This document shows positions 7,719 through 36,565 of a stretch of 64,000 nucleotides of DNA, piece after piece. A model generated the notes under the pieces. It was not told the DNA's origin, made no database searches, and saw only the letters and a program-made list of their open reading frames with translations. The first letter of the stretch is position 1; every line of letters begins with the position of its first letter. The position numbers and the translations under genes were made by a program. This DNA is from Paracyclopina nana (Eukaryota > Arthropoda > Copepoda > Cyclopoida > Cyclopettidae), in assembly GCA_019096065.1 (NCBI GenBank), contig JAGUCH010000003.1:5766001-5830000 (forward strand), read 5' to 3'.

Positions 7719-7736
7719 TCACCCCACGCTAGAAGG

Positions 7737-8276: not shown

Positions 8277-9203
8277 TGGTGTGCGACGGTCACACCCTCT
8301 GAAGCCTAGGATGGTTAGCATCGGCTTCATGGTCGCGGTACCGTTCGCAGCCTCCGGGTGCTGGCCGGATGTCTACCCGCCTTGGACCCAAAGCCGCAGC
8401 CTCGGCGCTCCAACTCTGGCGAGATACATCACATGGCAAGCTTCAGTGCTGTAGACCAGTGATTGGGCCTCCTACCCACGTCCTCAACGGCCTCAACAGC
8501 CTCAGACTAGGGTGCATAACTGCCCAGGAAACCTCTATACAAGTTATGGTCGAACAAAGTCAAACAAGGTTGTCTTATTCACTCAGCTTTTAACACCACA
8601 CAAATTAATGGCAGCAAATACAGAGAAATAAGTACTGCAGTAAATATTCTTGTGGCCATCTTCTTCATGCCTCAGCACACTTTGGAGAACTTTGTTGGGA
8701 CAATAGCAGGGCAGAGCTCACTCAATGGGCCATGTGCACTTGGTCCATGTCTTGTTTCTCTGAAGTCCCCCATCGAACTCCCCGAGTCTTCTCCTTCTTC
8801 TCCACTCGATGCATTGCAGCAAGTTCCATCAGCTTCCATCTGCTTCTCTCCGTTATCATGCAGCTGCAGGTCCTCTCTATGTAGCAGCTAGCAACTCCTC
8901 CACACAATGGCTAGCAACTTCTCCACTTCAAGGTCAGGTGAATTGCCATAGGTAAGGCTCAACGCATAGGTAGTAGCAGCAGCAGCAGCAGCAATCAGAG
9001 AGTTGGAGGAGATGAAAAGGTGTTTTTTAAGAAGGGAGGTTTTGTGATTTTGAGGTGGTGATGTAGCGGTGAATGGGCAACCTTCCGGACTTCTGGCGGC
9101 TCCACGGGCTCCACGGTTTCCACAGGTTCCACTGGAGGGGTCCAATCAAGTCCTATTCTGGTCGTAACGTGCACCAGAGACATGATGTACTTATTGCCCA
9201 TCA
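8277..9203 (-). repeat. Inner element LTR (3' LTR)
   Basis: 927-bp LTR with near-inverted ends (TGGTG...CATCA on the plus strand). It contains a short GTAGTA(GCA)n microsatellite near 8967-8992. No difference was found by eye from 30914-31840. Short ORFs inside it occur identically in both copies and show no recognisable family; I take them as chance. Confidence 0.92.
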
Positions 9204-9218
9204 TTCCCCGGCCCTAAC
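9204..9218 (-). other. Polypurine tract of inner element
   Basis: Read on the minus strand, GTTAGGGCCGGGGAA directly precedes the 3' LTR (TGATGGGC). This is the expected position and purine-rich composition for a plus-strand priming tract. Confidence 0.65.
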
Positions 9219-9307
9219 TTTTTCAGCTTTTGAAATATTTTTTAAGCTCTAAAAATATAAAAAAGGTGTCATTGATCGCTTACATCACATTAAGGTTGAT
9301 ACAGTTA

Positions 9308-11194
9308 TTATACTAACGTCGCGCCTCCCAGGCCACTCATTCGCACAGTAAGGCGCTGATTTTGGTCAGCATCTTTCTTGCGATCTCCTCTATTGTAGCG
9401 AAGCCGTGAGCGGGACGTATTAGGTCTCACATAGCCTCCATCATCATAACATCGGCTGCATACTCGCCGCCTTTTCCAAATCAATATGCCCATACACGTG
9501 AATCCCAGTGCTGCAGACAATAGGCTCACTGTCAGGATTATTTCCCAATTATTGAATAAACCTCCAAGTTCATCTTCAGGGAATTTTGTAAAGAACTTCA
9601 CCATATCACTTTCCCAAGGAGAGTCCTCGTATCCAGTACTTTGAGTTCCAAGGGAAACCTTACAATTGCTAAGGATCTGGTAGGATCCTGGTTCCAATAC
9701 CATCGAGTTCTTGAAGTCATTTAAACAAGTCCTATTAATCATTGCACTTGAGACCAAATTTAAGAACCCTTTATAATTTGCACATCCCACATCAGTGAGC
9801 GTGTTAGTTTTAAGTGGCTCTAATTCACAGGCGTCAAATGGGTCACCCAGAGCTAGCCCTAAAAGTACTTTAGCACAGTGTTGGACTCCTTCTGTCAAGT
9901 CAAAGTCCTTGTTTTCACACACGGTTAAATTATGGTCATGAACGAAGCAATCACTATAGGTGGGTATTTCCCGAGACACAAACACTAGATCATTTCGGCG
10001 GGTCAAATACCTATCATGCAACAAGAATCCATTTTTGCTTCGTGACACAATATGATATGTGACCTCAGGGGTAGGGTCCATTTCTTTATACCCAACTATT
10101 CCCTGAGTGACAAAATCTCCGCTCTGCTCAGTGTTCGCCAAAGGTTCATAAACATTAGTAATGGTGGCCGCATTTCTGTCACTATTATGCGCCAGAGTTG
10201 GTATGCTGAACCGTGTGCCTGCCTGTCCAAAATTTCTGGCAAATTGCACAACTGTGTCAGCATATGACAATACTTGCTGCAGATCATTTGGTATTAATCC
10301 AGACTTCAAAAAGACCTTGCTAAAACCTTTCAGTAGTCGAAAGGCCAAAGAAACTTTCGGTGGAACTCTCAGTGGAGTGGTATTTGCTATCATGCCATCG
10401 GTGAATTTTGTCGATTTACCTGATTCTGCTAGGGCCATCACGGCGTTGTAGGCCTTTTCAAGGAAGCTTTTCCTCCCAGACAATTCAGATTTGACAAAGT
10501 CCTTATGGGTGATGACAAAGTCATTTTGGACACACATTGTTGCCTTCCCATCACTGTGTGGTGCATGGGCTTTAACTGAAGTCATGGTCTTCTGTCCTGG
10601 TCCCACAGTGAAATACCCCGTGATACACGGGTAACCTGCAATAATCTGATCGTCCGGTTTTTTCTCATACCCCACTTGGGGAAATGTGGTTTTTCCATCC
10701 AAGGACATAGGTACCTCATTGACAATCCGAAATTTCACACATAAAGTTACCTTAGGGGCAAGAGGGCTTTCCTTTGCAGTATAACGTAATAGTTCTAGAA
10801 AAACGTCCATGTCTTTATGAGTTTTAGGGGCAAATGGTACAAACCCTTGACGTTTGGAACAAGCTTTGTCGATGGTGTTAGGGGTACTCTCTTCGCCAAC
10901 TGCCAACATATTCCCAATATGGACCAAGTCCTCCTTGTCCTTAACTTCTTTTACCACGGTGTCAATATTATTCAGGATGCCAATTGTTGATTGCAAAAGG
11001 CCACTGTAATCCTTCGTATCTAACACCATAGCCTTTTTCACCATTCTAGGATGATGGACCACTCTAACTGGAACTAGGGCATGTCCAGAATGGCAAAGCG
11101 CCTCATCCAGTACAAACTGAGTATGTGGGTAGTTGGATAGGCCCCAAGTGCCAGGTCCCAGAAGGGTGAGTATGAAGACCAATTCAAACGACAT
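9308..11194 (-). CDS. Env-like type I membrane glycoprotein of inner element
   Basis: Intact 628-aa ORF, last before the 3' LTR, the usual place of an env gene. Signal peptide at residues 1-19 (MSFELVFILTLLGPGTWGLS), a long Cys-containing ectodomain with several N-glycosylation sequons, one transmembrane helix at about 548-572 (IILTVSLLSAALGFTCMGILIW), then a basic tail with a CSRC pair. I do not recognise the fusion-protein class and see no clear furin site. By position and topology it is an envelope-type protein; an origin from a viral glycoprotein is inference. It lies 237 bp downstream of the orphan 458-aa ORF. Confidence 0.7.
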   Translation of the reverse strand: MSFELVFILTLLGPGTWGLSNYPHTQFVLDEALCHSGHALVPVRVVHHPRMVKKAMVLDTKDYSGLLQSTIGILNNIDTVVKEVKDKEDLVHIGNMLAVGEESTPNTIDKACSKRQGFVPFAPKTHKDMDVFLELLRYTAKESPLAPKVTLCVKFRIVNEVPMSLDGKTTFPQVGYEKKPDDQIIAGYPCITGYFTVGPGQKTMTSVKAHAPHSDGKATMCVQNDFVITHKDFVKSELSGRKSFLEKAYNAVMALAESGKSTKFTDGMIANTTPLRVPPKVSLAFRLLKGFSKVFLKSGLIPNDLQQVLSYADTVVQFARNFGQAGTRFSIPTLAHNSDRNAATITNVYEPLANTEQSGDFVTQGIVGYKEMDPTPEVTYHIVSRSKNGFLLHDRYLTRRNDLVFVSREIPTYSDCFVHDHNLTVCENKDFDLTEGVQHCAKVLLGLALGDPFDACELEPLKTNTLTDVGCANYKGFLNLVSSAMINRTCLNDFKNSMVLEPGSYQILSNCKVSLGTQSTGYEDSPWESDMVKFFTKFPEDELGGLFNNWEIILTVSLLSAALGFTCMGILIWKRRRVCSRCYDDGGYVRPNTSRSRLRYNRGDRKKDADQNQRLTVRMSGLGGATLV

Positions 11195-11431
11195 CTTACC
11201 AGCACAAATTCTGATCAGAAACTATATAGGCCCCAAGACCGCTAACTTTCCTTATAAACCCAGACAAGTGTGGGCACGCCACCTTGCTATGTCTAGACAC
11301 TCTTTGCTTTTTGCCATTGGTTTTTATTATCATAGCATGTCGACATGTATGGTAAAAAATTAAGAGTATTGGCCCACAACCAAGTATTTTATCAATATGT
11401 ACAATTCGAGTTTAAAGGGTAATTTCATTTT
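11195..11431. other. Spacer between env-like ORF and 458-aa ORF
   Basis: No ORF recognised. It may hold the splice acceptor or promoter used to express the glycoprotein from the minus strand; no clear signal was identified. Confidence 0.3.
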
Positions 11432-12808
11432 TCAGAACTGCCCAACAAACCCATTAATCGCCTCAGTGAATACCTTGATGTCGCTGGGGGTCATTTCCTC
11501 CATTTTAGTCTGGAGGAGATAGTTCACACGTTCCTTATTCTTATCGACTTTGGAGCGCTTAGCGTGCAATATGTCTGGTCCATTCGCTCCTGCGCCAAAA
11601 GGGCGCCCGCGAGCTACATCGGCGTACAGTCTAGGTCCTCGCCTTGGTTTTTGTTGCCAGGACTTCTCCACAAATGCAGCTAACTTTTGGGGCCTGGCCC
11701 CGGCTGTGTACCTCACGCATTGCGGATACGTTCCAATGGCCCGATCAACAAACTGGGCTACCATGGTAGGCAGGAGTGCGGTCATGTCGATCTTCACGTC
11801 AAGTTTTCGTGGGGCTTGAGCCACACCATTGTTAAGGCAGGACGGCGGTCCCACATACAGTTGCAGGTAAGGTGACGTCAAATCATAAAACATCCGTGGA
11901 TCCCAAAATGATGAGTCCAATGTTGGCATGATCTGAATGCAGCCTCGCTTGGTATAATGTTTGGAGACTACTACAGGGAGTTGAGCTCCACCTTGGCCAC
12001 GAATCCCGTGAACATAGTACCCCACTGCAGTGGGGCTCTGAACTGCAGACCAACTTCTGACATTGGCCAACTTATGGACATTCTCGTCATATTCCATCTT
12101 GTCAGGCAAATTGTAGACTGGTAGGTTGTCTAGCATCGGAAATATAACAAGGAAATCGGGAATCTCCCCACCCTTACTCACTGGCTCGATAATCAATTCA
12201 ATACAATCGAAGTTTTTCACCTTCAATGGCCTACGGGCCTCGGTCCGTTCATAGGGTTCTCCATTTATCCGAATCGTCAGGTCGAAAGGCACCTCCTTTC
12301 CAACCGTCATGACCTCCTTCGTGGCTATCTTCAACAGGCTTGCATCATAATGCTGCTGTATATTAGCCCTAGTCCGGCTCACCTCCCTCGTATAGGCCTG
12401 TAGCCCTTCCATGTGGGGAGGCCTGATCAAATCCTCAAATGGCAATGGGTACCCCAAACTGGAGGATACCCTTTCCAATGGGACCTCGAGGGGTTCCTCT
12501 TGGTCCTGGTGTCTAGTCGTCTGATTCTGGGCTTGGTTCTCATTATTGACAGGGGGCATGTCGCGATCCATGACAGGCTCATCGTCCTTAAGCAGCTCCC
12601 TAACTTCTTGTTCGTTGAATTCTCCAGTCTTATCAGTCTCCATCATGGAGACCATTGCAGATTCTCCTTCAAGGGACTCAGTGATCAGGGACATCCTTAA
12701 GTTGTCAAGGCTGTTCAAGCTATCGCTCATTTCCAGACTGTTGCTATAAGAGCGTAAACTGCCCTTTTTATACGAATCCTTACAGGTATGCCCCACACTC
12801 TCGGGCAT
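11432..12808 (-). CDS. Orphan 458-aa ORF of inner element
   Basis: Intact ORF of unknown function just upstream of the env-like gene on the same strand. Residues 1-110 are acidic and Ser/Gln-rich and probably disordered (ESLEGES, NNENQAQNQTTRHQDQEE). Residues about 170-360 look like a beta-rich globular domain (FDCIELIIEPVSKGGEIP, YYVHGIRGQGGAQLP, YLQLYVGPP). The C-terminus is basic then helical (RSKVDKNKERVNYLLQTKMEEM). No signal peptide or membrane helix. A structural or nucleic-acid-binding role is conceivable, but no family was recognised. Confidence 0.6.
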   Translation of the reverse strand: MPESVGHTCKDSYKKGSLRSYSNSLEMSDSLNSLDNLRMSLITESLEGESAMVSMMETDKTGEFNEQEVRELLKDDEPVMDRDMPPVNNENQAQNQTTRHQDQEEPLEVPLERVSSSLGYPLPFEDLIRPPHMEGLQAYTREVSRTRANIQQHYDASLLKIATKEVMTVGKEVPFDLTIRINGEPYERTEARRPLKVKNFDCIELIIEPVSKGGEIPDFLVIFPMLDNLPVYNLPDKMEYDENVHKLANVRSWSAVQSPTAVGYYVHGIRGQGGAQLPVVVSKHYTKRGCIQIMPTLDSSFWDPRMFYDLTSPYLQLYVGPPSCLNNGVAQAPRKLDVKIDMTALLPTMVAQFVDRAIGTYPQCVRYTAGARPQKLAAFVEKSWQQKPRRGPRLYADVARGRPFGAGANGPDILHAKRSKVDKNKERVNYLLQTKMEEMTPSDIKVFTEAINGFVGQF

Positions 12809-13091: not shown

Positions 13092-14111
13092 ATGGTATTG
13101 TTGGCCTGGGTCTCGTTAAATCCCGATGGCAGCTCAGCACAGGCTCCCACCGAGGCTACATCCAATTCACCCGCCGTGGATTCTGAAGTTATGCGCCCGA
13201 TGGGCCCGTCATCTGATCTCCCTGAGGGTGACATTCTTGATGTGGGAACAAGGCCTGGCAGTGAGCCAGACCCTGTTGACCCGTTTGAAGTGGAGGTTTT
13301 TAATCCCCACGATTTAATGCCGGTGGTACCAAACAACTATCGCCCCGTATCCCCCCAGAGGGACTGGGTCGATGAGATATTCAACTATCATCGGTATGGG
13401 ATCATGGGTTGGATCGGTCTTGGTGCCTCAATCGGCATGGCTTTGGTAAGTTTTACCACAGTTGCCCATATTAATGTAATTTTCATCTGTCAATAATTGT
13501 CTTCAGATCCTGCTCGGTATGTTGACTTATGGATGCGTGTGGGTATCTCGGTGGTGCCGTAGATACTGGACCATGTTCCGCGCGATTCGTGAAGAGGCCG
13601 CAAATAGAGAGGCCGTGGAAATGCAGCCAACCAAGCCCAGTACCGAGCCTACGGCAGTTTTTCACTGCTGCACCCCAGATCTCAGGGCTTTGTCGCCTGT
13701 TTCAATCATGCGGGAGCCGGACGTTCATTCGCTCCAAATGGCGATGGCTGCCATGGACCCCTACGGGACATTGCGCCGGAACCCCAGCGTCATGTCGGGC
13801 TTGGCTAATCTGTACGAGGTTCCCAATCCTAAAGGCTGGGTAAGATCCTATCAATTCATAAGCATCAAGTTATTTAATATTCTTTTCATGTACTTTTCCA
13901 GGTACCTGTCGCTGAAGGTTATGGGCGGCAGACCATGAAGAGGCGATCCCGTCGGGCTCGAGCCCGAGAGAATCGTCGCTTGAACTCGGCAGCGGAGTCC
14001 ATTCCGGACAAAGAAGAAATCAATGAAGCTGAACCTCTCTCAATTGAAGACGAGGACCAGGACTCAGCCGGGTCCAAGGCTTCTCAAGACGTTAATAGCG
14101 ATGCCAACTAA
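13092..14111 (+). CDS. Antisense spliced gene for a single-pass membrane protein (inner element)
   Basis: Plus-strand gene lying opposite to gag-pol-env of the element. Exons are 13092-13445, 13507-13839 and 13902-14111; introns are 61 and 62 bp with GTAAG donors and CAG acceptors, and all joins keep one frame (298 aa). The first intron falls inside a transmembrane helix that only forms after splicing (GWIGLGASIGMAL joined to ILLGMLTYGCVWV), strong evidence that splicing is real. N-terminal residues 1 to about 18 may be a signal peptide ending SAQA; the frame is open further upstream to 12993. The ectodomain is about 100 aa and acidic, and the tail is about 170 aa with a basic cluster (KRRSRRARARENRR) and an acidic end. 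No family recognised. A poly(A) signal follows at 14428. Confidence 0.65.
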
Positions 14112-14229
14112 GGATCGCCACGAACTTGCAAGACGAAGATCACTCTCTTTTCGCACGCATTTAAGCTTGTTTTCTGTAACTTTTGCACTTTGTTCTTCTT
14201 GTCGCGTGCAAATTCTCACTTTATAACTC

Positions 14230-14335
14230 GCACTTCCCGCAGTCTTCGCGGACTTTTCCACTTTTTCGAGATCTCGCAAACTTTCTGAGTCCTCACAGAC
14301 TTTTCGAGGCCTCGCAGACTTTTTAAAGCCGGCTT
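14230..14335 (+). repeat. Degenerate tandem repeat, about 20-22 bp unit
   Basis: Four to five imperfect copies of CTCGCAGACTTTTCGAGGC-like units (CCGCAGTCTTCGCGGACTTTT, TCGCAAACTTTCTGAG, TCACAGACTTTTCGAGG, TCGCAGACTTTTTAAAG). It lies in the probable 3' UTR of the antisense gene. Confidence 0.6.
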
Positions 14336-14427
14336 TTTGCACTTGCACTCGTCTTGTTTTTATTTTGATCTCAAAGCTTCCAATATACTCGAGTATATAC
14401 TATAGTACTTGTATTCTATATATATAT

Positions 14428-14433
14428 AATAAA
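14428..14433 (+). terminator. AATAAA poly(A) signal for antisense gene
   Basis: AATAAA about 317 bp downstream of the plus-strand stop at 14111, after a TA-rich run. Consistent with an independent plus-strand transcript ending here. Confidence 0.45.
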
Positions 14434-14608
14434 GAATTCGAATTCAAGTGGGGTAGCAGGTATTAGCGGAGCCGTTACCTTCATCTAACAGCGCTCCCAG
14501 ACTTTACGTAGAGGCGCGTAATAAAAAGAGGCTTTTTCACGTAAAATTTGGCCGATTTCAGACCGGATTTGCCTGGTAGCGCGCCTCGTTTACTAAAAAG
14601 TTCAAAAC

Positions 14609-15143
14609 ATGGCGGGCTTCCTTCACGGCTTGTTCGTAAGTTTTTATTTCGAATCGAATCCGTTGAATCCTTTCGTAAAACTGTATCTTTTCATTGGGAA
14701 TGTAGAATCCTTCTACCACAACGGTGGCGCCAGCCACCGAGGCTCCCGTAGGGGCGCCCCCCGCGGCCGAGTCTGCGGCGGGGTGGCCCCAGCCACCTGC
14801 GGCCCCGCCCGCAGCCCCCATGGGCCACGAGGAGTGCCCTCCCTGCCCCGTTCAGGGCTTCGTAAGTGCATTTATTCGTTATCTATTTGGTCAAAGCTCG
14901 ACTTTTTCTCGTATTACAGGCCGAAGAGATCCTCTAGGGCGTGGCCCTGAACGTGGCAGGGGCCGCGGCCTATTATTTGGTGGCCCTCCCTGCCCTCGCC
15001 TGGGTCCACCGGGCAAAACCCCGGGGCCTCTACCGGCTGGTCAGCCGGGTTTGGGCCGAGCCGGAGGACCTCCCCCGGGTGTCGGCCTGGGTCCTCCGCT
15101 GCATGGGCGTGGCGGAGGCGGACCCCCTCGAAGGAGTCGTCTA
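14609..15143 (+). pseudogene. Second antisense membrane-protein gene, frame broken by TAG
   Basis: Plus-strand model: exons 14609-14635, 14706-14861 and 14920-15143, with GTAAGT donors and TAG/CAG acceptors (introns 70 and 58 bp). The joined frame runs from MAGFLHGLF through an Ala/Pro-rich segment with CPPC, then meets TAG at 14935-14937. The same frame then stays open for about 68 codons and encodes a membrane helix (GAAAYYLVALPALAWV) and a basic tail. A further GTAAGT donor at 15144 and TTTTGCAG acceptor at 15205 suggest a fourth exon; AATAAA is at 15308-15313. The architecture (ectodomain, one helix, tail) resembles the neighbouring antisense gene. The region is markedly GC-rich. It may be a decayed copy or may need stop read-through. 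A minus-strand ORF overlaps at 14558-14821. Confidence 0.45.
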
Positions 15144-15405
15144 GTAAGTCTAACTTATTCACTTAAGCTATCACAGCTTCACTATATTCATCTTATCTTT
15201 TGCAGAAATCGTCTCGTTATCGGTAGGCCACCGCACCGGCCAGGGCTGGCCCCAACGTGGCCCAAGGCCAGCCCGCCCCCCCTCGCCAGGATGGCCTCCC
15301 TTACGGGAATAAAGTCCACGTTCATTGTACTTTTGTGTCTACTGTGTTTACCGCAACTCATTTCGCGTTTACCTCAGCAGGTAGCTCAGCCTTATTCAGT
15401 ATGAA

Positions 15406-18400
15406 GCTCAGCACCTTTCTAGTCGAGTTCAGCAGTTCATTATCATAGCCAAGCACATTTCGAGTCCAATTGTTTACATTACATGGCCAAAAGGACCATA
15501 GACCATATCTCAGGTGTCAAGAATTGCATTTTTAATTGCATAATTAATCATTAGCGAATCATTAGCGGCCCAAATCCACAGATTCGGGCCTGTAAATAAG
15601 CTAGCATTCCAGCTAGGTCTCGAGGCACATAGGCAATGCCCACAAATGGCCATTCATTGGACTAGGCATTCCAGCTCGGCCTTGACGGTCTTGACACTGC
15701 AAACGATGCTTCAATGTTCAAGAACAGCGTTTACTATAGCCCTGCATTCCAGCTCGGGCTTGGTGCATCACCATTATTTGAGTGTCTGCGATTACTACCG
15801 GCTGAGCGTTGGTGCTTATGGGCTACCAATGCTAATTTGCAGCATTTTTTCCTTTGACATCCCGGCTCAGCCTTGATGCAAGGGAAATTGTCCCGCATTC
15901 CAGCTAGGCCTTGAAGGTGGCTTGGGATTCGTATCATCCCTACAGGACTGGAAAACCGGCCGTATGTCATTGCACATAGCAAAAGCAAGCTCAAGCACTA
16001 GGCAATGGCACAATATTCTTTTCCATATCAGGCTAGAAAATGTGTATTTTTCATTTTCTCACATGTCAGTCTGCAATTTGTGCTGACCTAGCTTGTTTTG
16101 CTAGTGCTGTGTTTAGCGTAACTCAAATTCTCCACTAAAAAAGAGGGGAGTCATGTGGCTGCTGCAAGACAGCCATATTTCAGCACTTATTTTATTTAAC
16201 AATATGCCTAATCTTAGTGCACTTTGAACCTTTTCGTCTGTTGGTCCATCTGGCGATCATTAGCAGTATCATTATAACATTAGTCATTTTGATCGCTTGA
16301 CTTTTATGCAACGTTTTATTTTATTCATTGTATTCGCATAATAAACCCCGGAATTGAGTCACCTACTCGAGCCAATTGTGGTCATTTCGAGTTTAGGTAG
16401 GTTCAAAAACCTTCACAGGTGAATTGTGTAGGTGTACCGGCGGCGCAAATCTCCATTGTTCGTTTTAGCCTCTGGCAAAACGTTTTTGGTTCGTGGTTAG
16501 GCGCATGGTGGCGCCACCATTCTACATCTCCAAGCGACGCCACTCAAACTGGATTTTACTAGTGTGGGAGCGTCTCTGGATCTTTTTGTTCCATAACAAC
16601 TTTTTGCCCCCCTTGGAGTCGAGTATCTTGCTCAACAGGCGCTGGCTCAGCGTCTTTGCTCAATGCAACTCACATTTCAGTCTATCTTGCTCAAATGTTT
16701 TTTGTCTAGCCATTTTGAACAGACACATAGATTATTTTTATCTGTTATCACTAAATTGCATCGCTATTATAGCTCTGCATTCCAGCTCGGTCTTGATGCG
16801 TGCATCAAGTTCGGGTGCTCATAACCGAAATTGATTTAAAAGATTGAGGTTATCAGCACCAATCTTTTCAGCTAATTTCGGTTAGCACTAATAGTAATCC
16901 ATGATACAATTTTTGGGGCGCAGGCTGCATTTCCTGCGGCTACGTATATATACTCCCCCCTCCACAATTTTCTGCATTTTGTGGGAACTGCAGTGAGCAG
17001 TCACACAAAATTCAGGTAAGTATGTTTTCGAATCTTTAACTATAAAAGATTTAGCGGCTAGGCTAATTTTATTCAATTTTATTTGAACTATGTCGCCCGT
17101 GGGCACCATCCATGATATCAATAACCGAAATCGTGCCACCGTAAGAAGGGAAGGGCGGCACACACTGAAATTTATTTTTTATTTGGAATTAGTGAGTCCA
17201 AAAGGTATTTCCAATACAAGTTTAATTGTCACACATAGACTGTTGTGGCAAACGAACTTAAAATGGTATTTTATGGGGAAACACTTGTTCTCCTCCAAGA
17301 TACCCCAGTTGTATCCAAAGCTGATGAGTTCACCAGCATATAGGCTTTTTGGTGTCTTTAGTAGCCACAAGGGAGCGGCCCATTCCAATAGAGAAGTGGG
17401 TCCCCACATTTTGTTGAGGCAAGAAGACCATAGTTTGGGCTTTTTATTCGCCCAGGCACAAAAGCTGTATTTAGTATTTCAAGATCCCTTCTTAGGGAGA
17501 TGAATCCCATTTTTGTACAGTTTTTGATTTTCATGTTCCATCCTACTCAAAATCTGTCGGCGCCACGACCAGACCTGCTGTAATGTAACCAGGTCATGGT
17601 TGAGGCACTCTGACACCACAAGCACAGTAGTCGCCTCAACAGAGTTTTTATCTTATGGCAAGTACTACTGTGATATTGCTATCGTTTCCATGACTGAACA
17701 GTCTTAATTCATAATCATTCTTTTTTATCAATGCTAATTGTGATATCTGTAAAGGAGAATGATTACTATACAGTGGCTCATTCCTCATTTCGGAGGGTGG
17801 GCATTTTTTCTAAGTTCTTCTGGGATTTTTCAAGATCGTTCCAAGATTTTATATAATAATGTGTCCAACACAAGTCCCCTCACGTATTGTGAGGTTTATT
17901 GTGTCCCACTTGCACAGTGCCTAGTGTCAACTTTTGCTGTGCTAAAATACGAGTGTCCCAGTAACTATCAACTCGCGCGAGGCGTAGAGTGGATAGTGGT
18001 TCCGTTTGGACATAGCTCAGTGGAGCTTTAACCATAGTTTTCAAAACATTCCGTAGACAGATGGGGCATTTGCCCCTCTGGTATTACGCCCATCTGCAAC
18101 TTCCCTCTTGCATGGCGTGGTTATATTACTTTACTTTATATAACAGTCTTACTTTATCTAGGCCAATCGGCCCATTGATACCTCAGTAGGGCTAAGTGCA
18201 GTATTAGTGCGAAGCCCTAAGATTGAAGTAATACAATGTCTTTGTCCTCTACGGTGGGGTAATATATTGCGTAGAGTTTATATCCATGTTCCTTGCTTTC
18301 GTAAAAAGCATTTGTACCTTTATTCAAACGAAATACCTGCTATGTTCACAAAATGGAACGAGTAAGATTCGTATCCGTCTTTGCTATCATAAAAGGCATT

Positions 18401-23300: not shown

Positions 23301-24984
23301 CTTCACGTTGAAACGAGTGATATGAGAGGCAAACCGATAGAGGAAAGCGTGCGCTGTGTGCACCAACACACACAGCTTTCCCATCCTCATTCACCTCCAT
23401 TAATAATGCCGAGGTACTTATTACCCCAGAATCAACCACTAAATAACCTTCTTTAAAACGTGGCAATGCCAGCGACATACCTGTTTTAATCTCATCTATT
23501 ACTTTATAGAAACATTTTTCTTGGAAAGCAGTGAAGGTGAACTTCCCTGTTTTTCCTTGTGCTGTCTGTAATACATCAAGCAGTGGAGCTGTGTATGTAG
23601 CCATATTGGGGCAGTACTGGCTTAACCAGTTTGTCATTCCAATAAACTTTTGCAGCTGTTTCTTGGTTGTAGGAATAGGGAAATCATCAAATGCAGACCT
23701 GAATTTATCGGGCATTCGCATAGTCATAATCCCATTTTCATCAATAGATATTAGGTGCCCTAAGACTGTAGCTTCTTTAACACCTAATTGGGTCTTTTTA
23801 ATTTGTAATAGGGCATTTAAGTCCTTGAGGCTTTGAAACAACTTCCTCAGATCACCTAAATGTCGTATGTAATCATCCAACGTAGCAGGCCTAGGCTTGC
23901 CAGGGTTCTTACAGGCCACGACCAAATCGTCTACATATACACATGTAAAGGGCAATATCTCAGGGTTAAGGGCCTGTTGGAGGAGCTCTGCGAACATTCT
24001 CGGAGCAATGGCGATCCCTTGTAGGCATGACTTACTTTTCAAAAAGACTGATCTATATATACTGCGAGGGGACGTTACTGCAAAGCAGCACATATCGGCA
24101 CTATCAGAGTCCACAGGTAGGTTATCGTATCCGGATGTTACATCGAAAGATGACATCAAACATGAATTAGATAACATCCCTAGCAAGGTAGGGATAGGCG
24201 GCACTATGTGCTCCGAAGTCGTAAATATCAGATTTTTATTAAAAGATGTTAAGTCAACTAATAGCCGAGGCTTGCGTTGCTTCATAGGCAGCTTTTCATC
24301 ATTTGGCCTTGAAGTCAAGAAACAAGGGCATGCCGAGTACCTATTAAGTGACTTATCCACAATCTCAATTAATCCAGATGACAGCATTAAAGCTATTTTA
24401 CGGTCAACCTGGGTAGTTTCATACTCTGACATGTTGAATACTTTTGGCACCAAGGGCTTATCATCCTTTAGCTGGAACTTCATCGGTTCGACATTCCATA
24501 GCCTATAAGATCTAGGATCTTCAGAGAAGATAGTCTTATATTCCAATAAGAGGTCCCTAAAGTCCTCCCTAACTTCATCCGGAATGTGTTCCAAATCCAT
24601 GTTCAAGATTGTTTCCGGTTTTAATGGGAATGTGTACCCTGCCACTCCATTCAAAACACGGAGAGGGTCAAATTCACTTGGAAATTTCAAAAGGAGATTA
24701 TAAACCTCATCATATAGTTTTTGGTTATTTCTCTCATCCTTAGAAAGCTCCAGGCTAGCTGATACAAGATCTAGTTCAGACGGACTCTTCAGAACTGTTT
24801 GTCTGACACTGGTATCGACAATAGGACCTTCATATATAGTAGTGAAACTTTTAAGTGGCACTTTGATGCCCAAGTCCTTTGCCAAGCAAGGTTTGCATGA
24901 GCAACCCGGTGGTTCAAGTACAAATGGTATAAATTTACCAAATTTTGTCTTTATATCCTCTTTGGTAAGGTCATCAGGGTACAT
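20248..24984 (-). CDS. pol: Pol (RT-RNase H-integrase) of inner element
   Basis: Intact 1578-aa polyprotein. The RT lies at about residues 180-460 with the catalytic YVDDLVVA at about 349-356. RNase H follows at about 510-650 (VVDSG, REALGV, TDCLSI as the acidic residues). The integrase has an HHCC finger (HLLHNH ... CMHC) and a D,D,E core (MIDLAKFDE, LLADNGAQ, NAYAENAIR) at about 930-1040. A long, partly acidic C-terminal extension of about 450 aa follows. The domain order RT-RH-IN fits Ty3/Gypsy as well as BEL/Pao; the sequence is too divergent to choose by eye. It has no protease, which lies in the preceding ORF. Its ATG is 12 bp after the protease ORF stop. Confidence 0.9.
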   Translation of the reverse strand: MYPDDLTKEDIKTKFGKFIPFVLEPPGCSCKPCLAKDLGIKVPLKSFTTIYEGPIVDTSVRQTVLKSPSELDLVSASLELSKDERNNQKLYDEVYNLLLKFPSEFDPLRVLNGVAGYTFPLKPETILNMDLEHIPDEVREDFRDLLLEYKTIFSEDPRSYRLWNVEPMKFQLKDDKPLVPKVFNMSEYETTQVDRKIALMLSSGLIEIVDKSLNRYSACPCFLTSRPNDEKLPMKQRKPRLLVDLTSFNKNLIFTTSEHIVPPIPTLLGMLSNSCLMSSFDVTSGYDNLPVDSDSADMCCFAVTSPRSIYRSVFLKSKSCLQGIAIAPRMFAELLQQALNPEILPFTCVYVDDLVVACKNPGKPRPATLDDYIRHLGDLRKLFQSLKDLNALLQIKKTQLGVKEATVLGHLISIDENGIMTMRMPDKFRSAFDDFPIPTTKKQLQKFIGMTNWLSQYCPNMATYTAPLLDVLQTAQGKTGKFTFTAFQEKCFYKVIDEIKTGMSLALPRFKEGYLVVDSGVISTSALLMEVNEDGKAVCVGAHSARFPLSVCLSYHSFQREALGVLTMINHFKSILFAYERLVIVTDCLSIASVLASSFTGKDAFTHRLAARIYSLPVAWKLRAVPRTEVEVVDVLLNKYHQTPEGETVFYAPYSIAGQITKDIYSNKYPLPDAIKDKVLTTQELLTHVYDTLVNSGTMSKTLLQKRLHCLNDKWVDMIGTKPPFVHDDTSTLLRAKHDDDEFLEDEILSKLSHSFHGEADFDSPVNHIENNLRVDTVTVKRRISPHLPGITRSLLIKLQQNCEETQKIINLIMLSPPEKVPLDVAVKYRVLDGALLVIRKNVKLPFSVATNTKVYMSMPNCVYLMACIHLLHNHLGSKKTNTLFTQSMYSTYSARISRIIIGACMHCALYRQANTRFVGKGRFRIPTQPWELVMIDLAKFDETLVKGSSAKDLLVFVDIYSKMIIAKPLLDAKYKQVANAMEEVISLFGVPKTLLADNGAQLTTNKALQRLVDRYKIKELCHYRTLSPYKHSNAYAENAIRIIRSALVLNSNSYNMKLCDVFKTSIYAINNRPLTYLAYTDDKGVKITPTPFSLFFDKMPTYHLGRDVFEILSESEDKIHKAEWRQRMREYDLEEQFHLEKMKATERPSFKPEIGSLVLVIKHPINKQRYKFMDDLFEVIDIGQHSTVTVQPYLYDGLTREVSLDHVKIYRFHELYRFLPEKLSNLLKRPYTLEEILRKKARNEVIEFLEGAAPESHEYSLRNRTKASSIVASQSSLISQSSATDTEPSAIHQTYKRSGSILMQKAASLFKPSDILRIQEENKQLVQKQWEQYDRKKLEDNYLANNADNNFVRKETSESLSDTDTDDFIERAIALSANTGPNEAFYEDMLALSQRGPPTFAEMAQQERLYPNLPSVKPEHISTPDHSNVSEGTLAGVSPVKWAFRGQYRDQQEQAIPESPEKYHTPDQSISETPNEDNDNIEEVVEKAASFIVPSKFDIDLESLSAGLEGMQLAIPTEPFGGNTQEDENESSDSDDTTTIYYTARRNLRRTPLTKSIKQNVQRAIWYCTTPIRIIPA

Positions 24985-24996
24985 TTGTAACCCAGA

Positions 24997-27108
24997 TTAC
25001 ACTAGCAATGCAGCGGTGGTTGCCATACAAAGTGGGTCACCTACATGCACATCGCCATCCATAAGTGTTCTAATCCACACGTCGTCGGCCACATTTTGGT
25101 ACCGTAATTGACCAATTATTATGTACATAAGCGTGGTTAAGTAGCCAACATTCTCTGCATGTTCGCTAGGGACATGTAATATTAACTCAACATTGTTGGA
25201 CAACTTAAACATGATACCATGAGCTCCAAGGACATTTAGTTCAAAATACTTATCTAGTTCATTTCTTTGATAAGCAAGTGGGTAATTCTCATACTCATGT
25301 ATCATCATAGTTATTATGACCCTATCCATCCCAGTGAGGTAGGATTCAATAGGACACAATGCAATGGTCTTACATGGTGGGCAAATATACTTATATTTTA
25401 GCCATACTACTTTAAGTTTATCTACCATCATATTCATCTTTATTACAATGCGCTTTTGTTCGCCAGACAAAAGTTTATGTCCTGGAACAATAACAGCCCA
25501 CGGTAATTCATCCCATTTTTCTCGTTTCATAAACTTGCTAATTATTACGTCAGTTATTTCCTCGTAACCATCACTTTGGTTAGATGAGATAAACACGTAA
25601 TTTCCTTTTCTACTAATCATAGGCTTGTGACTTCCCCTTAGTGGCTCATAGGCATTGAAAACATGCATATCAGTAAAGGAAAGACCATTTATATCCGTAA
25701 ACTGCACAATTACGTGCGAATCCAAATAATTGCAGTAACATGACTCCATTTCATGCTCTAGGGCCTTTAAACTAATGTTAGCCACATGGGCTGCAACCGT
25801 ACTCTTAAATTTCTGTTTCTTGACAATCCTGGCTCGCCCAATCACTGCATGTGCATTTAAGTAGATGGGATCTTCAGTATTATTCCCAATATTTACTGGG
25901 AAAGTACCTTTACGAGTGACTGCAGTAAGTGCCCCCTCAGAGGTCACTCCGCGGTACTCGTTACTAGGCATAAAGTTTAAGTACTTATCCACCAATCCGG
26001 AATAAACATTTTTCTGGTGATGAGTACGCCCAAGTTCGTCATCTTCGTCAGAGTCAGAATCTATTTGAATGTCATTACTGATGACAGGTAAATCGTGAGG
26101 TAAACTAGCCATGGTGGTCACTTCTTCTCCAGGGAGCAGAGTGATCCCTTCATTTATTGCCACTGGGTAGAAAGCCTCTTTTGATAGTAAGAGTGGAATT
26201 TTCTTATGTTTAGATTTTCCAGGGAAATCCATAAAGTGCTTTCCATCTTTACTAGTCATCCGGACATTATTGTCCACTAATAACGAGTTTCCTATCATTA
26301 ATAGTGTATCGCAATCAGATACAAGGAAAACAGCCTGTCTGATTAAAACACGATTTCCAAATGCAACTTGAATAGAGACAGCTTCATTCCCTGGGAATTC
26401 TTCCCCATTAAAGTTCTTAATTACATAATTAGTTTCGACCCGAGGTAGAGTGTAACCAATTTTGTCTTCGATTAGTTTTACAAGAGTGCGTGATATTATC
26501 TGCACCATTGCTCCACTGTCAAATAAAGCATGCAAACGTATTTTTCCAGTTATCTCCACTGGTATAAAATACCTTTCACAAACATTATGTAGTTTTAATG
26601 AGTATATACTCAGCATGTCATCTTCAAGTTCCGGATTCGGTAAAGGTTCAAAATGTGTTACTGGCTCTGCTTCATTAGCATTTACTGAGGCCAGATGTGT
26701 AACGATACCATCATTACTACAAGTTTTTTGCTCATCATTCGTGCTACCTTTTACAAAGTAGTACCATAAAGCTATTATTGCTCCACTACAGATTACTGTA
26801 ATTGGCCAATAATTCCAACCAAATAAGCAATATTGACATATTGTTATTGCAAACAGTATTATGCTAATCTCAATCACAGTCATAGTATGCTGAGGGACAA
26901 ACCGACTTTTTCTACCCCTTATTGCAAGAACCAGAGCCTTTTCGTCCTCACTTCCACGAGTCATAATTTCAGCATTTTTTACAGATTGCTCCTTTAAATA
27001 ATCAAAGTAAGCTCGTCCTACTTCTTTGTTACATTCTCCCCTCATAAATGAAGGCAAGATGTAACTATCTTTATCATTCTTATTGGGAGTTTTTGTACTT
27101 GGTCCCAT
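24997..27108 (-). CDS. Membrane-anchored aspartic protease ORF of inner element
   Basis: Intact 703-aa ORF between gag and pol. Two hydrophobic helices near the N-terminus, at about residues 76-97 (VIEISIILFAITICQYCLFG) and 100-118 (WPITVICSGAIIALWYYF). A retroviral-type aspartic protease follows, with ALFDSGAMVQIIS at about 192-204. The remaining 400 residues are unassigned and contain an acidic stretch (SDSDEDDE) and a possible CPPC. A separate protease ORF with its own membrane anchor is not the normal Gag-Pro-Pol layout. Its ATG overlaps the gag stop as TAATG, suggesting coupled termination-reinitiation rather than frameshifting. It might be read as a former envelope or accessory ORF fused to protease, but no evidence decides this. 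Confidence 0.8.
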   Translation of the reverse strand: MGPSTKTPNKNDKDSYILPSFMRGECNKEVGRAYFDYLKEQSVKNAEIMTRGSEDEKALVLAIRGRKSRFVPQHTMTVIEISIILFAITICQYCLFGWNYWPITVICSGAIIALWYYFVKGSTNDEQKTCSNDGIVTHLASVNANEAEPVTHFEPLPNPELEDDMLSIYSLKLHNVCERYFIPVEITGKIRLHALFDSGAMVQIISRTLVKLIEDKIGYTLPRVETNYVIKNFNGEEFPGNEAVSIQVAFGNRVLIRQAVFLVSDCDTLLMIGNSLLVDNNVRMTSKDGKHFMDFPGKSKHKKIPLLLSKEAFYPVAINEGITLLPGEEVTTMASLPHDLPVISNDIQIDSDSDEDDELGRTHHQKNVYSGLVDKYLNFMPSNEYRGVTSEGALTAVTRKGTFPVNIGNNTEDPIYLNAHAVIGRARIVKKQKFKSTVAAHVANISLKALEHEMESCYCNYLDSHVIVQFTDINGLSFTDMHVFNAYEPLRGSHKPMISRKGNYVFISSNQSDGYEEITDVIISKFMKREKWDELPWAVIVPGHKLLSGEQKRIVIKMNMMVDKLKVVWLKYKYICPPCKTIALCPIESYLTGMDRVIITMMIHEYENYPLAYQRNELDKYFELNVLGAHGIMFKLSNNVELILHVPSEHAENVGYLTTLMYIIIGQLRYQNVADDVWIRTLMDGDVHVGDPLCMATTAALLV

Positions 27109-29672
27109 TATTGTTTACGAGCAGGTCGCGTCTTCCAACACTGTTCTCCCCTAAACTCAAGGTGCAATCCTTTACACAATGGGCACAATGTGCCATCGTT
27201 TCTAATCGAGGTCAAATTTGTGTTCGGGTAATTTGTACACTGTGTAGCGTAATGCAATTGGTTGCAGAATAAGCACCCACCAGTCTGAAGAGGGTTTCCT
27301 TCAGGCAACTTTGCTGTATCTATGTTAAAAGTTTTTCCCAACCTATTTATTTTCTCGGATGGTGATTCAGCTTTCATCATAGCTACTTCAACAGCTTGCC
27401 TACTCAATTCAAAATTTGCTCGGGCCAACTCACTTTGTAGCTCATTTATTATTTTAGCACTTCGTTGACTACGGCCAGAGGCTGCCGACATAGTGCTAGC
27501 ACTTTCTAACACCTCTTCTTCAGTAGCTTCAACCATAGCAATTCTAGGTTTGGCACGCATATTGGGTACCATTGGCAGCCTCTCCTCTTTATGGGCCCTA
27601 TCCAGGTCCCTTGGCACATAAGTACCTAGGTCACTACCAATTAGGTTCATCATGATATTGTAGGCGTGCAAACTCCTAGCAGGTATATTCGCTCTCAGCA
27701 GATAGTCGTTGTATTTGTTTACTAACGACTGGTAATTCTGAGGCCAATGACGTCCAAGGAGTGCAAAACCATCAGAGATGGCTTCAGAGACTGCATGAGC
27801 ATCTCCGCCATCTCCAATGGTTGTGCTATGTATCTTCATTCGTAGTCGAAGAATTGACTTAAGTGTGGCAGTGAAGCACTCAGTTGGCTTCCGGATCATC
27901 TCCTGAATGAGGAAGTATGGGTCCTCTTTACGCACAAACTGAGTGTAGTTAAAGGTATCTTGCCATAGCAGTTCCATACCATCTTTTCCTTCTCCAGCCA
28001 TCCCCTTAAAATACTCAATAGTATTCTGGGATGAAGCCTCATACATGGCTGTTAACAAGGCTGCATGAGACCAATGCTGTCTGCCAGCCTCGTTTGCCAT
28101 ATAGTCCAAAAAATTTATTATATTCTCAGCAGTTAATGAGGAACTATGTAGGTCAAACTTTTTAGTGTATTTGTGCCTAATCTCCTTCATTGACTGTGAG
28201 CTTGCATACTTAACATGACCATTAGTAGGTACAGCAATGTAACCTCTCATGGTGGTCGGATCATAAATGCTCCTAGAAGTGTCAGCTGACACTCCAGCGG
28301 CTACACTTATCTCAGGGGTCTTTAAGTAGCCTTCTGCCAATATTTGCTTTTGGAGAGAAGTAAACTCGTCCCTTGTGCTAAGTACACTAAAGAGCTTCTG
28401 CATCTCAATCATTTTCTTTCCTGAGGATAAGTTTGGGTCAACCATCTGAAGGATTACTCGTCTGGCTGATTCCACATCCTTAATCTCATCAGTGTTAATT
28501 AACTTAAGCCTCTCTGAAATTGGAGCAGACTCATCATAGATGACGTCAGTTTCCGGCACCATTCTTTCCTTCGTCGCAGCATCTACTATGCTTAAGGTTC
28601 TTTCTAAATTCTTACTGAAAATAGACTCTACTTTAGCCCCAACCATGTGCTTAGCCGTGATTTGTGCAGAGGCAATAATTTTATTTGCCGTGCTTGCATC
28701 ATGCATTTTCGTGTAGTAAGCTTTTACCGTGTTCAATTCCTGAATATTCAAATGGCCTCCTGACAACATCTTTTGTACCATTCTATGTACAACTTCCATT
28801 GGAGGAAGTGTGATTGAATTAGTCAAGTTATGCAAATCACGAGGATTCATTTTAGTCGAGGTCAGGACTGACTTATTTTGGCCATCCAGGTCAGCTCCTG
28901 TAGTGAACTCATGATGGTTAGTCCCAGGTGGGCTTGCTATCGAGGACATATCGGGGGCAGCATTACTCGTCTCATTATTAGGAAAATGTACACTCTGACC
29001 GGGGTTTTTCCGTGGTTTCAGGTCAAGCGGTTCCCTTAGGAAATAATCACTTTGTAGCCCGTAAAGCCTCGCTACAATAGCAAATCCATCTCCAAATGTC
29101 CGTATCTTTTGCCAATTCCTTGATATCAATGTTGCAACCATTTCAAGCGTTCCTGGCATTGAACTAGTCAGGAAGCTACCATCAACTTCTTGCGTCCGCT
29201 GTGTAGTTTTCTTTTCCTCAATACGAGTTAGGAACTCATCCAGGCCAAAGCAAATGCATAACAAGGCACATGTAGTGCTTGTTAATGAAATAGGGTCTAG
29301 CGCATCGATGTATTTAACCACATTTACAACTTGGCCTACTGGGTCCTTAAGGGGCATAGTCCCGATGATAGTCTTAATATGATCATCCAAAGGTCTAATT
29401 GGCTCCCTAGGGACAAGTACTATTTGAGTCCTATCCCATACAGCTGCTACTTGTGCTTGAGTTACTGTGACAAACTCTAGTGCTTCAGGGTAAGCAACGT
29501 GTGGTATAAACCTTTGCAACTCAGCTCTGCTATTCCCATTCGGAGTGCATTGGGATAAGTACCCTTGAAAAGTGTCCTCATTAATCCCAAGATGGTTTAA
29601 CAATCGGTCCTTGACTTTCGTAACTTCCTCAGCTAGAGTAGGTCCAGCGATCCTAGAATCCTGATTTGCCAT
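27108..29672 (-). CDS. gag: Gag of inner element
   Basis: Intact 854-aa ORF, first after the leader, ending in two zinc knuckles: CLFCNQLHYATQC (CX2CX3HX4C, a spacing common in BEL/Pao) and CPLCKGLHLEFRGEQC (CX2CX3HX7C). The central region is largely helical, as in capsid proteins, with a coiled-coil-like stretch before the knuckles (IINELQSELARANFELSRQ). It is about twice the usual length of a Gypsy Gag. No frameshift signal is needed, because the next ORF begins at the stop codon. Confidence 0.85.
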   Translation of the reverse strand: MANQDSRIAGPTLAEEVTKVKDRLLNHLGINEDTFQGYLSQCTPNGNSRAELQRFIPHVAYPEALEFVTVTQAQVAAVWDRTQIVLVPREPIRPLDDHIKTIIGTMPLKDPVGQVVNVVKYIDALDPISLTSTTCALLCICFGLDEFLTRIEEKKTTQRTQEVDGSFLTSSMPGTLEMVATLISRNWQKIRTFGDGFAIVARLYGLQSDYFLREPLDLKPRKNPGQSVHFPNNETSNAAPDMSSIASPPGTNHHEFTTGADLDGQNKSVLTSTKMNPRDLHNLTNSITLPPMEVVHRMVQKMLSGGHLNIQELNTVKAYYTKMHDASTANKIIASAQITAKHMVGAKVESIFSKNLERTLSIVDAATKERMVPETDVIYDESAPISERLKLINTDEIKDVESARRVILQMVDPNLSSGKKMIEMQKLFSVLSTRDEFTSLQKQILAEGYLKTPEISVAAGVSADTSRSIYDPTTMRGYIAVPTNGHVKYASSQSMKEIRHKYTKKFDLHSSSLTAENIINFLDYMANEAGRQHWSHAALLTAMYEASSQNTIEYFKGMAGEGKDGMELLWQDTFNYTQFVRKEDPYFLIQEMIRKPTECFTATLKSILRLRMKIHSTTIGDGGDAHAVSEAISDGFALLGRHWPQNYQSLVNKYNDYLLRANIPARSLHAYNIMMNLIGSDLGTYVPRDLDRAHKEERLPMVPNMRAKPRIAMVEATEEEVLESASTMSAASGRSQRSAKIINELQSELARANFELSRQAVEVAMMKAESPSEKINRLGKTFNIDTAKLPEGNPLQTGGCLFCNQLHYATQCTNYPNTNLTSIRNDGTLCPLCKGLHLEFRGEQCWKTRPARKQ

Positions 29673-30888: not shown

Positions 30889-30910
30889 TTCAATCCCTCC
30901 GGGGCCTCCA
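30889..30910 (-). other. Primer-binding site of inner element
   Basis: Three bases inside the 5' LTR, minus strand TGGAGGCCCCGGAGGGATTG. Its complement TTCAATCCCTCCGGGGCCTCCA looks like a tRNA 3' end: T-loop TTCAATC, stem and terminal CCA. The end GGGCCTCCA is close to tRNA-Gln (GGGACCTCCA). The tRNA identity is tentative. Confidence 0.7.
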
Positions 30911-30913
30911 AAA

Positions 30914-31840
30914 TGGTGTGCGACGGTCACACCCTCTGAAGCCTAGGATGGTTAGCATCGGCTTCATGGTCGCGGTACCGTTCGCAGCCTCCGGGTGCTG
31001 GCCGGATGTCTACCCGCCTTGGACCCAAAGCCGCAGCCTCGGCGCTCCAACTCTGGCGAGATACATCACATGGCAAGCTTCAGTGCTGTAGACCAGTGAT
31101 TGGGCCTCCTACCCACGTCCTCAACGGCCTCAACAGCCTCAGACTAGGGTGCATAACTGCCCAGGAAACCTCTATACAAGTTATGGTCGAACAAAGTCAA
31201 ACAAGGTTGTCTTATTCACTCAGCTTTTAACACCACACAAATTAATGGCAGCAAATACAGAGAAATAAGTACTGCAGTAAATATTCTTGTGGCCATCTTC
31301 TTCATGCCTCAGCACACTTTGGAGAACTTTGTTGGGACAATAGCAGGGCAGAGCTCACTCAATGGGCCATGTGCACTTGGTCCATGTCTTGTTTCTCTGA
31401 AGTCCCCCATCGAACTCCCCGAGTCTTCTCCTTCTTCTCCACTCGATGCATTGCAGCAAGTTCCATCAGCTTCCATCTGCTTCTCTCCGTTATCATGCAG
31501 CTGCAGGTCCTCTCTATGTAGCAGCTAGCAACTCCTCCACACAATGGCTAGCAACTTCTCCACTTCAAGGTCAGGTGAATTGCCATAGGTAAGGCTCAAC
31601 GCATAGGTAGTAGCAGCAGCAGCAGCAGCAATCAGAGAGTTGGAGGAGATGAAAAGGTGTTTTTTAAGAAGGGAGGTTTTGTGATTTTGAGGTGGTGATG
31701 TAGCGGTGAATGGGCAACCTTCCGGACTTCTGGCGGCTCCACGGGCTCCACGGTTTCCACAGGTTCCACTGGAGGGGTCCAATCAAGTCCTATTCTGGTC
31801 GTAACGTGCACCAGAGACATGATGTACTTATTGCCCATCA
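30914..31840 (-). repeat. Inner element LTR (5' LTR)
   Basis: Second copy of the 927-bp LTR, seen as identical to 8277-9203. The TAAT duplication follows at 31841-31844. The outer env frame runs into it by chance. Confidence 0.92.
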
Positions 31841-31844
31841 TAAT

Positions 31845-36563: not shown

Positions 36564-36565
36564 TC

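What the first reader, a model, noticed from the sequence alone, without database searches (positions are those of the whole stretch)
8277..31840. Giant 23.6-kb LTR retroelement coding on both strands
Two 927-bp LTRs, a TAAT duplication, primer site and polypurine tract define one element on the minus strand. It holds gag, a separate protease ORF, RT-RH-IN, extra ORFs and an env-like gene, yet between pol and env it carries intron-containing genes on the opposite strand and 3.7 kb of non-coding DNA. Typical Gypsy, BEL or retroviral elements are 5-10 kb and code on one strand. Long ORFs and LTRs that look identical mean it moved recently as a unit, so the antisense genes travel with it. Element boundaries are read from sequence; the claim of novelty is inference.
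Basis: partly seen in the sequence, partly recalled or inferred. Interest (0 to 1): 0.92.

Follow-up and report, generated by a model that had tools for sequence, protein, structure and literature searches.

The report
Giant retroelement with conserved antisense genes
This is one copy of a recently active family of very large (about 23 kb) retrovirus-like mobile elements that carry, on the strand opposite to their replication genes, two small intron-containing membrane-protein-like genes kept by selection, so such elements can stably run a two-strand gene programme.

Summary
Confirmed. The window holds a 23,564-bp LTR element (8277-31840, minus strand) with identical 927-bp LTRs and a TAAT duplication. 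The same unit recurs in the 92-Mb host genome: 18 of 19 examined LTR pairs have perfect 4-bp duplications (17 different sites) and all 19 enclose the antisense block. That block encodes two spliced genes, A (298 aa) and B (129 aa), each with one membrane-helix-like stretch. In 30 copies read, all splice dinucleotides of A are kept; A is open in 24, B in 26; whole-gene dN/dS is 0.11-0.18 (A) and 0.00-0.26 (B). Three further families in this genome (RT 88, 69 and 51% identical) keep the order pol / antisense gene(s) / ORF458 / env, with intron 1 of A at the same phase inside the helix; B was not found in one of them. Two details are corrected: the 'separate protease ORF' and the 'extra ORFs' are pieces of one pro-pol frame, broken in this copy and open in others. 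Pfam and PDB show no relatives of env, ORF458, A or B. Transcription, host species and function could not be tested. Giant Ty3-like elements and antisense ORFs are each known; this combination is a new variant.

The parts
8277..9203 (-). 3' LTR of the element (927 bp)
   Evidence: identical to the 5' LTR, 0 of 927 differences
30914..31840 (-). 5' LTR (927 bp)
8273..8276 (.). target-site duplication TAAT, left copy
31841..31844 (.). target-site duplication TAAT, right copy
9204..9219 (-). purine-rich tract beside the 3' LTR
   Evidence: sequence
30891..30910 (-). primer-binding-site-like stretch beginning TGG, 3 bases inside the 5' LTR; tRNA not identified
   Evidence: sequence
27108..29672 (-). 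gag-like ORF, 854 aa; assigned by position, no Pfam or PDB match
24997..27108 (-). protease part of pro-pol (weak Ty3-type aspartyl protease matches); cut off from pol by an in-frame stop in this copy
20248..24984 (-). RT - RNase H - integrase part of pro-pol
19107..20303 (-). C-terminal extension of pol, frameshifted in this copy (ORFs 19782-20303 and 19107-19712)
11432..12808 (-). ORF458, unknown protein, relatives in families 2-4; dN/dS 0.04-0.08 in 7 comparisons
9308..11194 (-). env-like membrane protein, 628 aa: hydrophobic N-terminus, conserved cysteines, C-terminal membrane helix
12899..12905 (+). TATA-like box upstream of gene A (TTATAAG in 28 of 30 copies; TTATGAG in this one)
13092..13445 (+). 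antisense gene A, exon 1 (ectodomain and first half of the membrane helix)
13507..13839 (+). antisense gene A, exon 2 (second half of the helix, cytoplasmic tail)
13902..14111 (+). antisense gene A, exon 3 (arginine-rich then acidic tail, stop)
14428..14433 (+). AATAAA after gene A; an AATAAA lies in 14112-14608 in 30 of 30 copies
14609..14635 (+). antisense gene B, exon 1
14706..14861 (+). antisense gene B, exon 2
14938..15144 (+). antisense gene B, exon 3 (membrane helix) to the TAG; a splice donor starts at 15144, and splicing would still give a stop
15144..15205 (+). proposed 3'-UTR intron of gene B (pattern matched in 24 of 30 copies)
15308..15313 (+). AATAAA after gene B; an AATAAA or ATTAAA lies in 15145-15420 in 30 of 30 copies
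16945..17021 (+). conserved TATATATA box and downstream GTAAGT donor: possible third antisense transcript, product unknown

Best explanation
This is a provirus of an undescribed lineage of giant, env-bearing LTR retroelements with Ty3/retrovirus-type pol, active until very recently. The sense (minus) strand makes the genomic RNA from the 5' LTR and encodes gag, one long pro-pol, ORF458 and env; the last two probably need spliced RNAs. Between pol and ORF458 lies an antisense module of two genes with introns, A and B, with their own promoter and polyadenylation signals, encoding small single-pass membrane proteins. Shown: mobility as one unit, open spliced frames, purifying selection, presence in several families. 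Inferred: because the module is antisense it can only be read from integrated DNA; its introns survive reverse transcription because they are not introns on the genomic strand. A and B then act as accessory membrane proteins of the provirus-carrying cell (trafficking, signalling, budding or superinfection control), the animal counterpart in layout, not in sequence, of retroviral and plant-element antisense genes.
For: 18 of 19 LTR pairs with perfect 4-bp duplications, 14 of 19 with no substitution between LTRs; 19 of 19 enclose gene A. Both introns of A keep GT/AG in 30 of 30 copies; A open in 24 of 30, B in 26 of 30. dN/dS 0.11-0.18 for A in 8 comparisons (L012 dropped, frameshift) and 0.00-0.26 for B in 8 (L013 dropped). 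Of six frames in 4 comparisons per gene, the predicted one alone combines no stop codons with dN/dS below 1. B exon 3 found at 79 places: 56 at 82-100%, 15 at 60-74%, 1 at 76%, 7 at 44-45%. Intron 1 of A is phase 0 inside the helix and 60-67 nt long in four families; A of families 1 and 2 match by BLASTP, 1e-9. RT families at 88, 69 and 51% with LTR-like repeats 18.9-28.3 kb apart in family 3 and about 22 kb apart in family 4. TATA-like box in 28 of 30 and polyadenylation signals in 30 of 30.
Against: No RNA or protein data. A of families 3 and 4 rests on position, membrane helix and intron; tblastn did not link them to family 1 (best 0.071). B was not found in family 3 (L089 and the first 2,000 bases of L085). 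ORF458 of family 3 rests on position and 21% aligned identity. Some copies are broken: A 6 of 30, B 4 of 30, ORF458 10 of 30. Polyadenylation hexamers occur often by chance. Function of A and B is inference; that gag and env are gag and env rests on position and layout. Target duplications were checked in family 1 only.
Confidence: 0.75

Rival explanations
1. The antisense transcripts, not the proteins, do the work: they pair with genomic RNA or provoke small-RNA silencing and so control copy number.
For: Antisense RNA regulation of LTR elements is discussed for plants and flies (passages of PMC7264820); a third TATA-plus-donor element at 16945-17021 has no ORF attached.
Against: A and B protein sequences are constrained far more than their synonymous sites (dN/dS 0.00-0.26 whole gene) and lengths change by multiples of three in the open copies. 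RNA control may exist as well.
Confidence: 0.1
2. A and B are host genes captured in reverse orientation, passengers without a role for the element.
For: They have introns and polyadenylation signals, as a captured genomic fragment would.
Against: No copy was found clearly outside element context: 55 of 56 gene A places lie beside an env match or inside an LTR pair. The module is in at least three families down to 51% RT identity and is under selection in the element. An ancient capture that then became useful is not excluded.
Confidence: 0.06
3. A chance composite: an ordinary 10-kb retroelement with a secondary insertion of another mobile element or virus fragment between pol and env.
For: The module runs in the opposite direction and differs in base composition (GC 50% at 12-16 kb, 40-42% in 16-30 kb).
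Against: The same order recurs in 19 of 19 LTR pairs and in other families with intron positions kept; the only repeat of 60 bp or more found inside the element was the LTR pair.
Confidence: 0.02
4. The predicted membrane proteins are an artefact of GC-rich sequence, in particular for B.
For: B lies in GC-rich DNA where several frames are open: plus frame 2 showed 0 or 1 stop in the same four comparisons, and B's exon 3 acceptor is a second AG 18 nt after a first one.
Against: Plus frame 2 has dN/dS of 2.1-3.1 where the proposed frame has 0.13-0.26; family 2 keeps B at 72% and family 4 at 44%.
Confidence: 0.05

Closest known systems
Plant Retand, Grande and RIRE2 Ty3-type elements with antisense ORFs between pol and the 3' LTR (abstract and passages of PMC11963269, passages of PMC7264820)
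   Same: Long region between pol and the 3' LTR with conserved antisense coding genes; for Grande an own antisense promoter is reported (PMC7264820).
   Different: Retand's region is 2.9-6.6 kb and its antisense ORFs mostly encode the TRP28 domain; its sense ORFs there encode no membrane protein. In the passages seen, no introns were mentioned (the word 'intron' occurs 0 times in both texts). Here there is an env-like gene and two spliced antisense genes with membrane helices, and an animal-like host.
Burro giant Ty3-like elements of planarians (passages of PMC6431247)
   Same: Internal region over 20 kb, Ty3-type pol, env-related part, recent copies in an animal.
   Different: Burro's size is a 4,873-aa polyprotein with captured domains and env in frame between gag and pol; 'antisense' occurs 0 times in that review's text.
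Retroviral antisense genes: HBZ of HTLV-1 and ASP of HIV-1 (named in PMC11963269 passages and in the listing; details recalled)
   Same: A spliced (HBZ) or membrane-type (ASP) protein made from the antisense strand of a provirus.
   Different: Those overlap sense genes and start in or near the 3' LTR; here the genes have their own segment, several introns and an internal promoter. No sequence relation was seen.
Errantivirus-type and bdelloid env-bearing LTR elements (passages of PMC5408684; errantiviruses recalled)
   Same: gag, pol, env-like third ORF, Ty3-type pol, 4-bp duplications (recalled for gypsy).
   Different: Far smaller; bdelloid extra ORFs in the passages seen are sense, apart from one mention of reverse orientation concerning small RNAs; env here matches no Pfam family.

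Membership tests
LTR retrotransposon / endogenous retrovirus | paired LTRs with TG...CA ends and a fixed-length target duplication at several sites | tested here: met
   18 of 19 pairs, 4 bp
LTR retrotransposon / endogenous retrovirus | gag-pro-RT-RH-IN with primer site and purine tract | tested here: met
   RT passes Pfam; RH, IN and protease are weak; order RT-RH-IN; gag by position only
Ty3 / Metaviridae | RT-RNase H-integrase order and RT nearest to Ty3 | tested here: inconclusive
   Order met and Ty3 Gag-Pol is the best PDB match, 7.5e-23; but in a tree with 26 of the 29 proteins found, the lineage sits on a stem of 2.57 changes per site, longer than that of the MLV clade (1.97), with no close partner. 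No Ty3, Burro or errantivirus row was available.
Errantivirus / Retroviridae with env | env recognisable as a known fusion-protein class | tested here: not met
   No Pfam match for env of families 1, 3, 4, none of E 0.001 or better in the protein search, only two designed helical proteins at E above 5 in PDB. Works like env by layout; not shown to be one.
Retand-type elements | antisense ORF with TRP28 domain between pol and 3' LTR | tested here: not met
   A and B have no Pfam match; the antisense location is met
Burro | giant polyprotein with host-like domains and env within it | tested here: not met
   env is a separate ORF downstream; no Burro-type domain (MATH, BIR, ankyrin) reported by Pfam in any ORF scanned
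Antisense-expressing provirus (HBZ-like) | antisense transcript and protein shown | not testable with these tools
   No RNA or protein data; only open frames, selection and signals

The most novel reading that the evidence does not exclude
A previously undescribed deep lineage of giant ambisense retroelements in an animal: env-bearing, 19-23 kb and more, whose proviruses have for the time separating families with 51% RT identity kept a two-gene, intron-bearing antisense accessory programme of membrane proteins, with an intron at a fixed place inside a membrane helix. It would be the first LTR retroelement lineage in which spliced antisense genes are a defining, lineage-wide feature rather than a single case.
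Probability: 0.6. Interest if true: 0.85.

Novelty: new variant of a known kind. Interest (0 to 1): 0.76.

Why it matters
Retroelements replicate through one RNA strand, so genes on the other strand can be used only by the integrated copy. A lineage that has kept such genes, introns included, offers a natural test of what a provirus needs from its host cell apart from making new copies. The introns also mark the genomic strand: they persist only because the replicated RNA is the opposite one. It extends the size and coding range of LTR elements in animals. About 56 copies and four families in one genome make selection, recombination between families and expression directly measurable.

Tried and rejected
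Assembly error or chance composite: rejected, the unit recurs with different duplications. Protease as a separate gene and 'extra ORFs' as accessory genes: rejected. Host gene as source of A and B: nothing outside element context except one unexplained place, C8:6617257-6618034. ORF458 as a known capsid or movement protein: my first thought from reading it; no Pfam or PDB support, so dropped. Viral contigs: no relatives of pol, env or ORF458. Host species: not identified; window genes have eukaryotic domains such as kinesin, gelsolin, PWI, Cir_N, Adaptin_N, and 'animal' is my inference. Two earlier polyadenylation counts were faulty because an anchor sequence was absent in most copies; one search replaces them. 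Alignments mixed strands and are replaced. In one search an opposite-strand frame also shows dN/dS of 0.22-0.35, as expected from shared wobble positions, but with 5-13 stop codons. Three antibody chains at E 0.11-0.78 for A in PDB are taken as chance.

Rows dropped: tree, 3 of 29 proteins (P0024, P0026, P0029; short plant matches) and no family-2 row; one search used 63 of 150 printed gene A rows (173 matches in all) so as to cover each place, and 71 of 72 env rows; 4 of 40 LTR matches were left unpaired and unchecked; two of the 19 pairs were completed by fetching the expected place.
Full report
The two 927-bp LTRs of the element at 8277-31840 are identical, end in TG...CA and are flanked by TAAT. 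A primer-site-like stretch and a purine tract lie where expected on the minus strand. Pfam finds reverse transcriptase (6e-13) and, below the curated cut-offs, RNase H, integrase and protease, in the order RT-RH-IN. The best solved relative is the Ty3 Gag-Pol protein, 7.5e-23.

It is a mobile unit. In the host assembly (92 Mb, 10 contigs) the LTR gives 40 full-length matches, a lower bound because 40 of 126 candidates were scored. From these I paired 17 elements and completed two more by fetching the expected place. Of the 19, 18 have a perfect 4-bp duplication; the C10 pair repeats the flanks of the C6 pair, so there are 17 different sites; the exception (C4:882910-906118) is one of two copies in tandem. 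14 of 19 have no substitution between LTRs. Of the 17 pairs with printed ends, 13 span 23.1-23.6 kb and four 29.0-35.8 kb. All 19 enclose a gene A match.

The antisense genes are real genes of the element. I read a 5.7-kb block from 30 copies (40 of 73 candidates scored, 30 fetched). Gene A has three exons (13092-13445, 13507-13839, 13902-14111) and encodes 298 aa with one hydrophobic stretch; all four splice dinucleotides are present in 30 of 30 copies. Gene B (14609-14635, 14706-14861, 14938-15144) encodes 129 aa with one hydrophobic stretch. A is open in 24 of 30 copies, B in 26 and the sense ORF458 in 20. Against the window copy, whole-gene dN/dS is 0.11-0.18 for A (8 comparisons, L012 dropped), 0.00-0.26 for B (8, L013 dropped) and 0.04-0.08 for ORF458 (7, L012 and L014 dropped). 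Single exons reach 0.46 where changes are few (A exon 1, L011: 6 and 4). As a control, all six frames were scored in four comparisons per gene: only the proposed frame combines no stop codons with a ratio under 1. One opposite-strand frame also scores low (0.22-0.35) but contains 5-13 stops; for B, plus frame 2 has 0 or 1 stop but a ratio of 2.1-3.1. A TATA-like box upstream of A is intact in 28 of 30 copies, not in the window's own (TTATGAG), and polyadenylation hexamers follow both genes in 30 of 30; such hexamers are common by chance.

The layout is older than this family. tblastn with the RT finds, beside 38 full-length matches at 97-100%, further groups at 88%, 68-69% and 51% (90 of 376 candidates scored). 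I read the stretch around the antisense module from one copy of each (L084, L085 with L089, L086). Family 2 has B at 72% and ORF458 at 45%, and a gene A of the same three-exon plan that matches family 1 by BLASTP (1e-9); its env is only 44% identical although its RT is 88%, which points to exchange of modules. Family 4 has B at 44%, ORF458 at 24%, env at 29% and an A-like gene. Family 3 has env at 27%, an ORF458-like ORF at 21% in alignment, and an A-like gene; no B was found between its pol and A. In all four, intron 1 of A is phase 0, 60-67 nt long and splits the membrane helix. For families 3 and 4 the link of A rests on that and on position, not on similarity. The module recurs in 8 family-2 places at 96% or more and 7 family-4 places at 90% or more. 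Repeats flanking families 3 and 4 lie 18.9-28.3 kb and about 22 kb apart; their duplications were not checked.

Gene A is tied to the element: of 56 places, 54 have an env match in the expected orientation within 8 kb, one lies inside a 30.7-kb LTR pair, and one (C8:6617257-6618034) is unexplained. Thirteen env matches had no A match nearby; most are family 2, whose A is too different for that search.

Pro and pol lie in one frame; 13 of 38 family-1 RT matches lie in an open frame of 2,646-2,669 aa. So the separate protease ORF and the ORFs at 19107-20303 are breaks in this copy; open copies exist. The long stretch without ORFs contains at least one conserved TATA-plus-donor element.

What it is related to. 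In a tree of 29 rows, the lineage forms one clade (100/100) on a stem of 2.57 changes per site, longer than that of the retroviral clade (1.97). No reference row of Ty3, errantivirus or Burro was available, so the rank of the lineage is open. Env, ORF458, A and B have no Pfam match and no convincing PDB match; env and ORF458 had none of E 0.001 or better among 5.8 billion proteins, a search limited to relatives sharing short exact words.

Mechanism. Shown: transposition as a unit, open spliced frames, selection. Inferred: A and B are expressed from integrated copies by their own promoter; being antisense they are absent from genomic RNA as messages, and their introns cannot be removed from the genomic RNA, which explains why they survive replication. 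Their likely place is a membrane; the tail of A carries tyrosine motifs (such as YGTL and YEVP in family 1, and YDV in families 2 and 4) and, in families 1 and 2, an arginine-rich stretch. I read these motifs by eye.

Literature. Ten text searches showed giant Ty3-like elements (Burro, Ogre; PMC6431247, passages) and plant elements with antisense ORFs (PMC11963269, abstract and passages; PMC7264820, passages), and no paper in the listings describing spliced antisense membrane-protein genes in an animal LTR element. The library is partial. I therefore rate this a new variant of a known kind.

Noticed in passing
7472-8272 and 31845-36810: The giant element sits inside an older, ordinary Ty3-like element on the same strand: LTR-like repeat 7472-7718 / 36566-36810 (97.6%), PNMA-like gag 34739-35671, protease-RT 33075-34634, and an env-like ORF at 31632-32603 that matches Monjiviricetes_fusion, 1.3e-33.
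   Followed up: partly
16945-17021: TATATATA box followed by a GTAAGT donor on the plus strand, conserved in the window, L082 and L083; possible third antisense transcript without a recognised ORF.
   Followed up: partly
14920-14938: Before exon 3 of gene B there are two AGs 18 nt apart with an in-frame TAG between; the TAG is present in 30 of 30 copies, the first AG in 29. Family 2 keeps the spacing; in family 4 it is 12 nt. Alternative acceptor or stop readthrough.
   Followed up: partly
14938-15144 and 13092-13839: Copies are mosaics: the window's gene B is nearly identical to that of L014 although gene A exons 1-2 are only about 66-80% identical, which points to recombination between subfamilies.
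   Followed up: no
C10:14800-38214 and C6:6897989-6921291 of the host assembly: The same flanks and duplication occur on C6 and on the small contig C10, probably a duplicate of one locus in the assembly.
   Followed up: no
15600-16800: A motif like GCATTCCAGCT(C/A)GG.CTTG recurs about six times in the stretch without ORFs (by eye).
   Followed up: no
56109-57073: Cluster of inverted and direct repeats of 70-80% identity outside the element.
   Followed up: no
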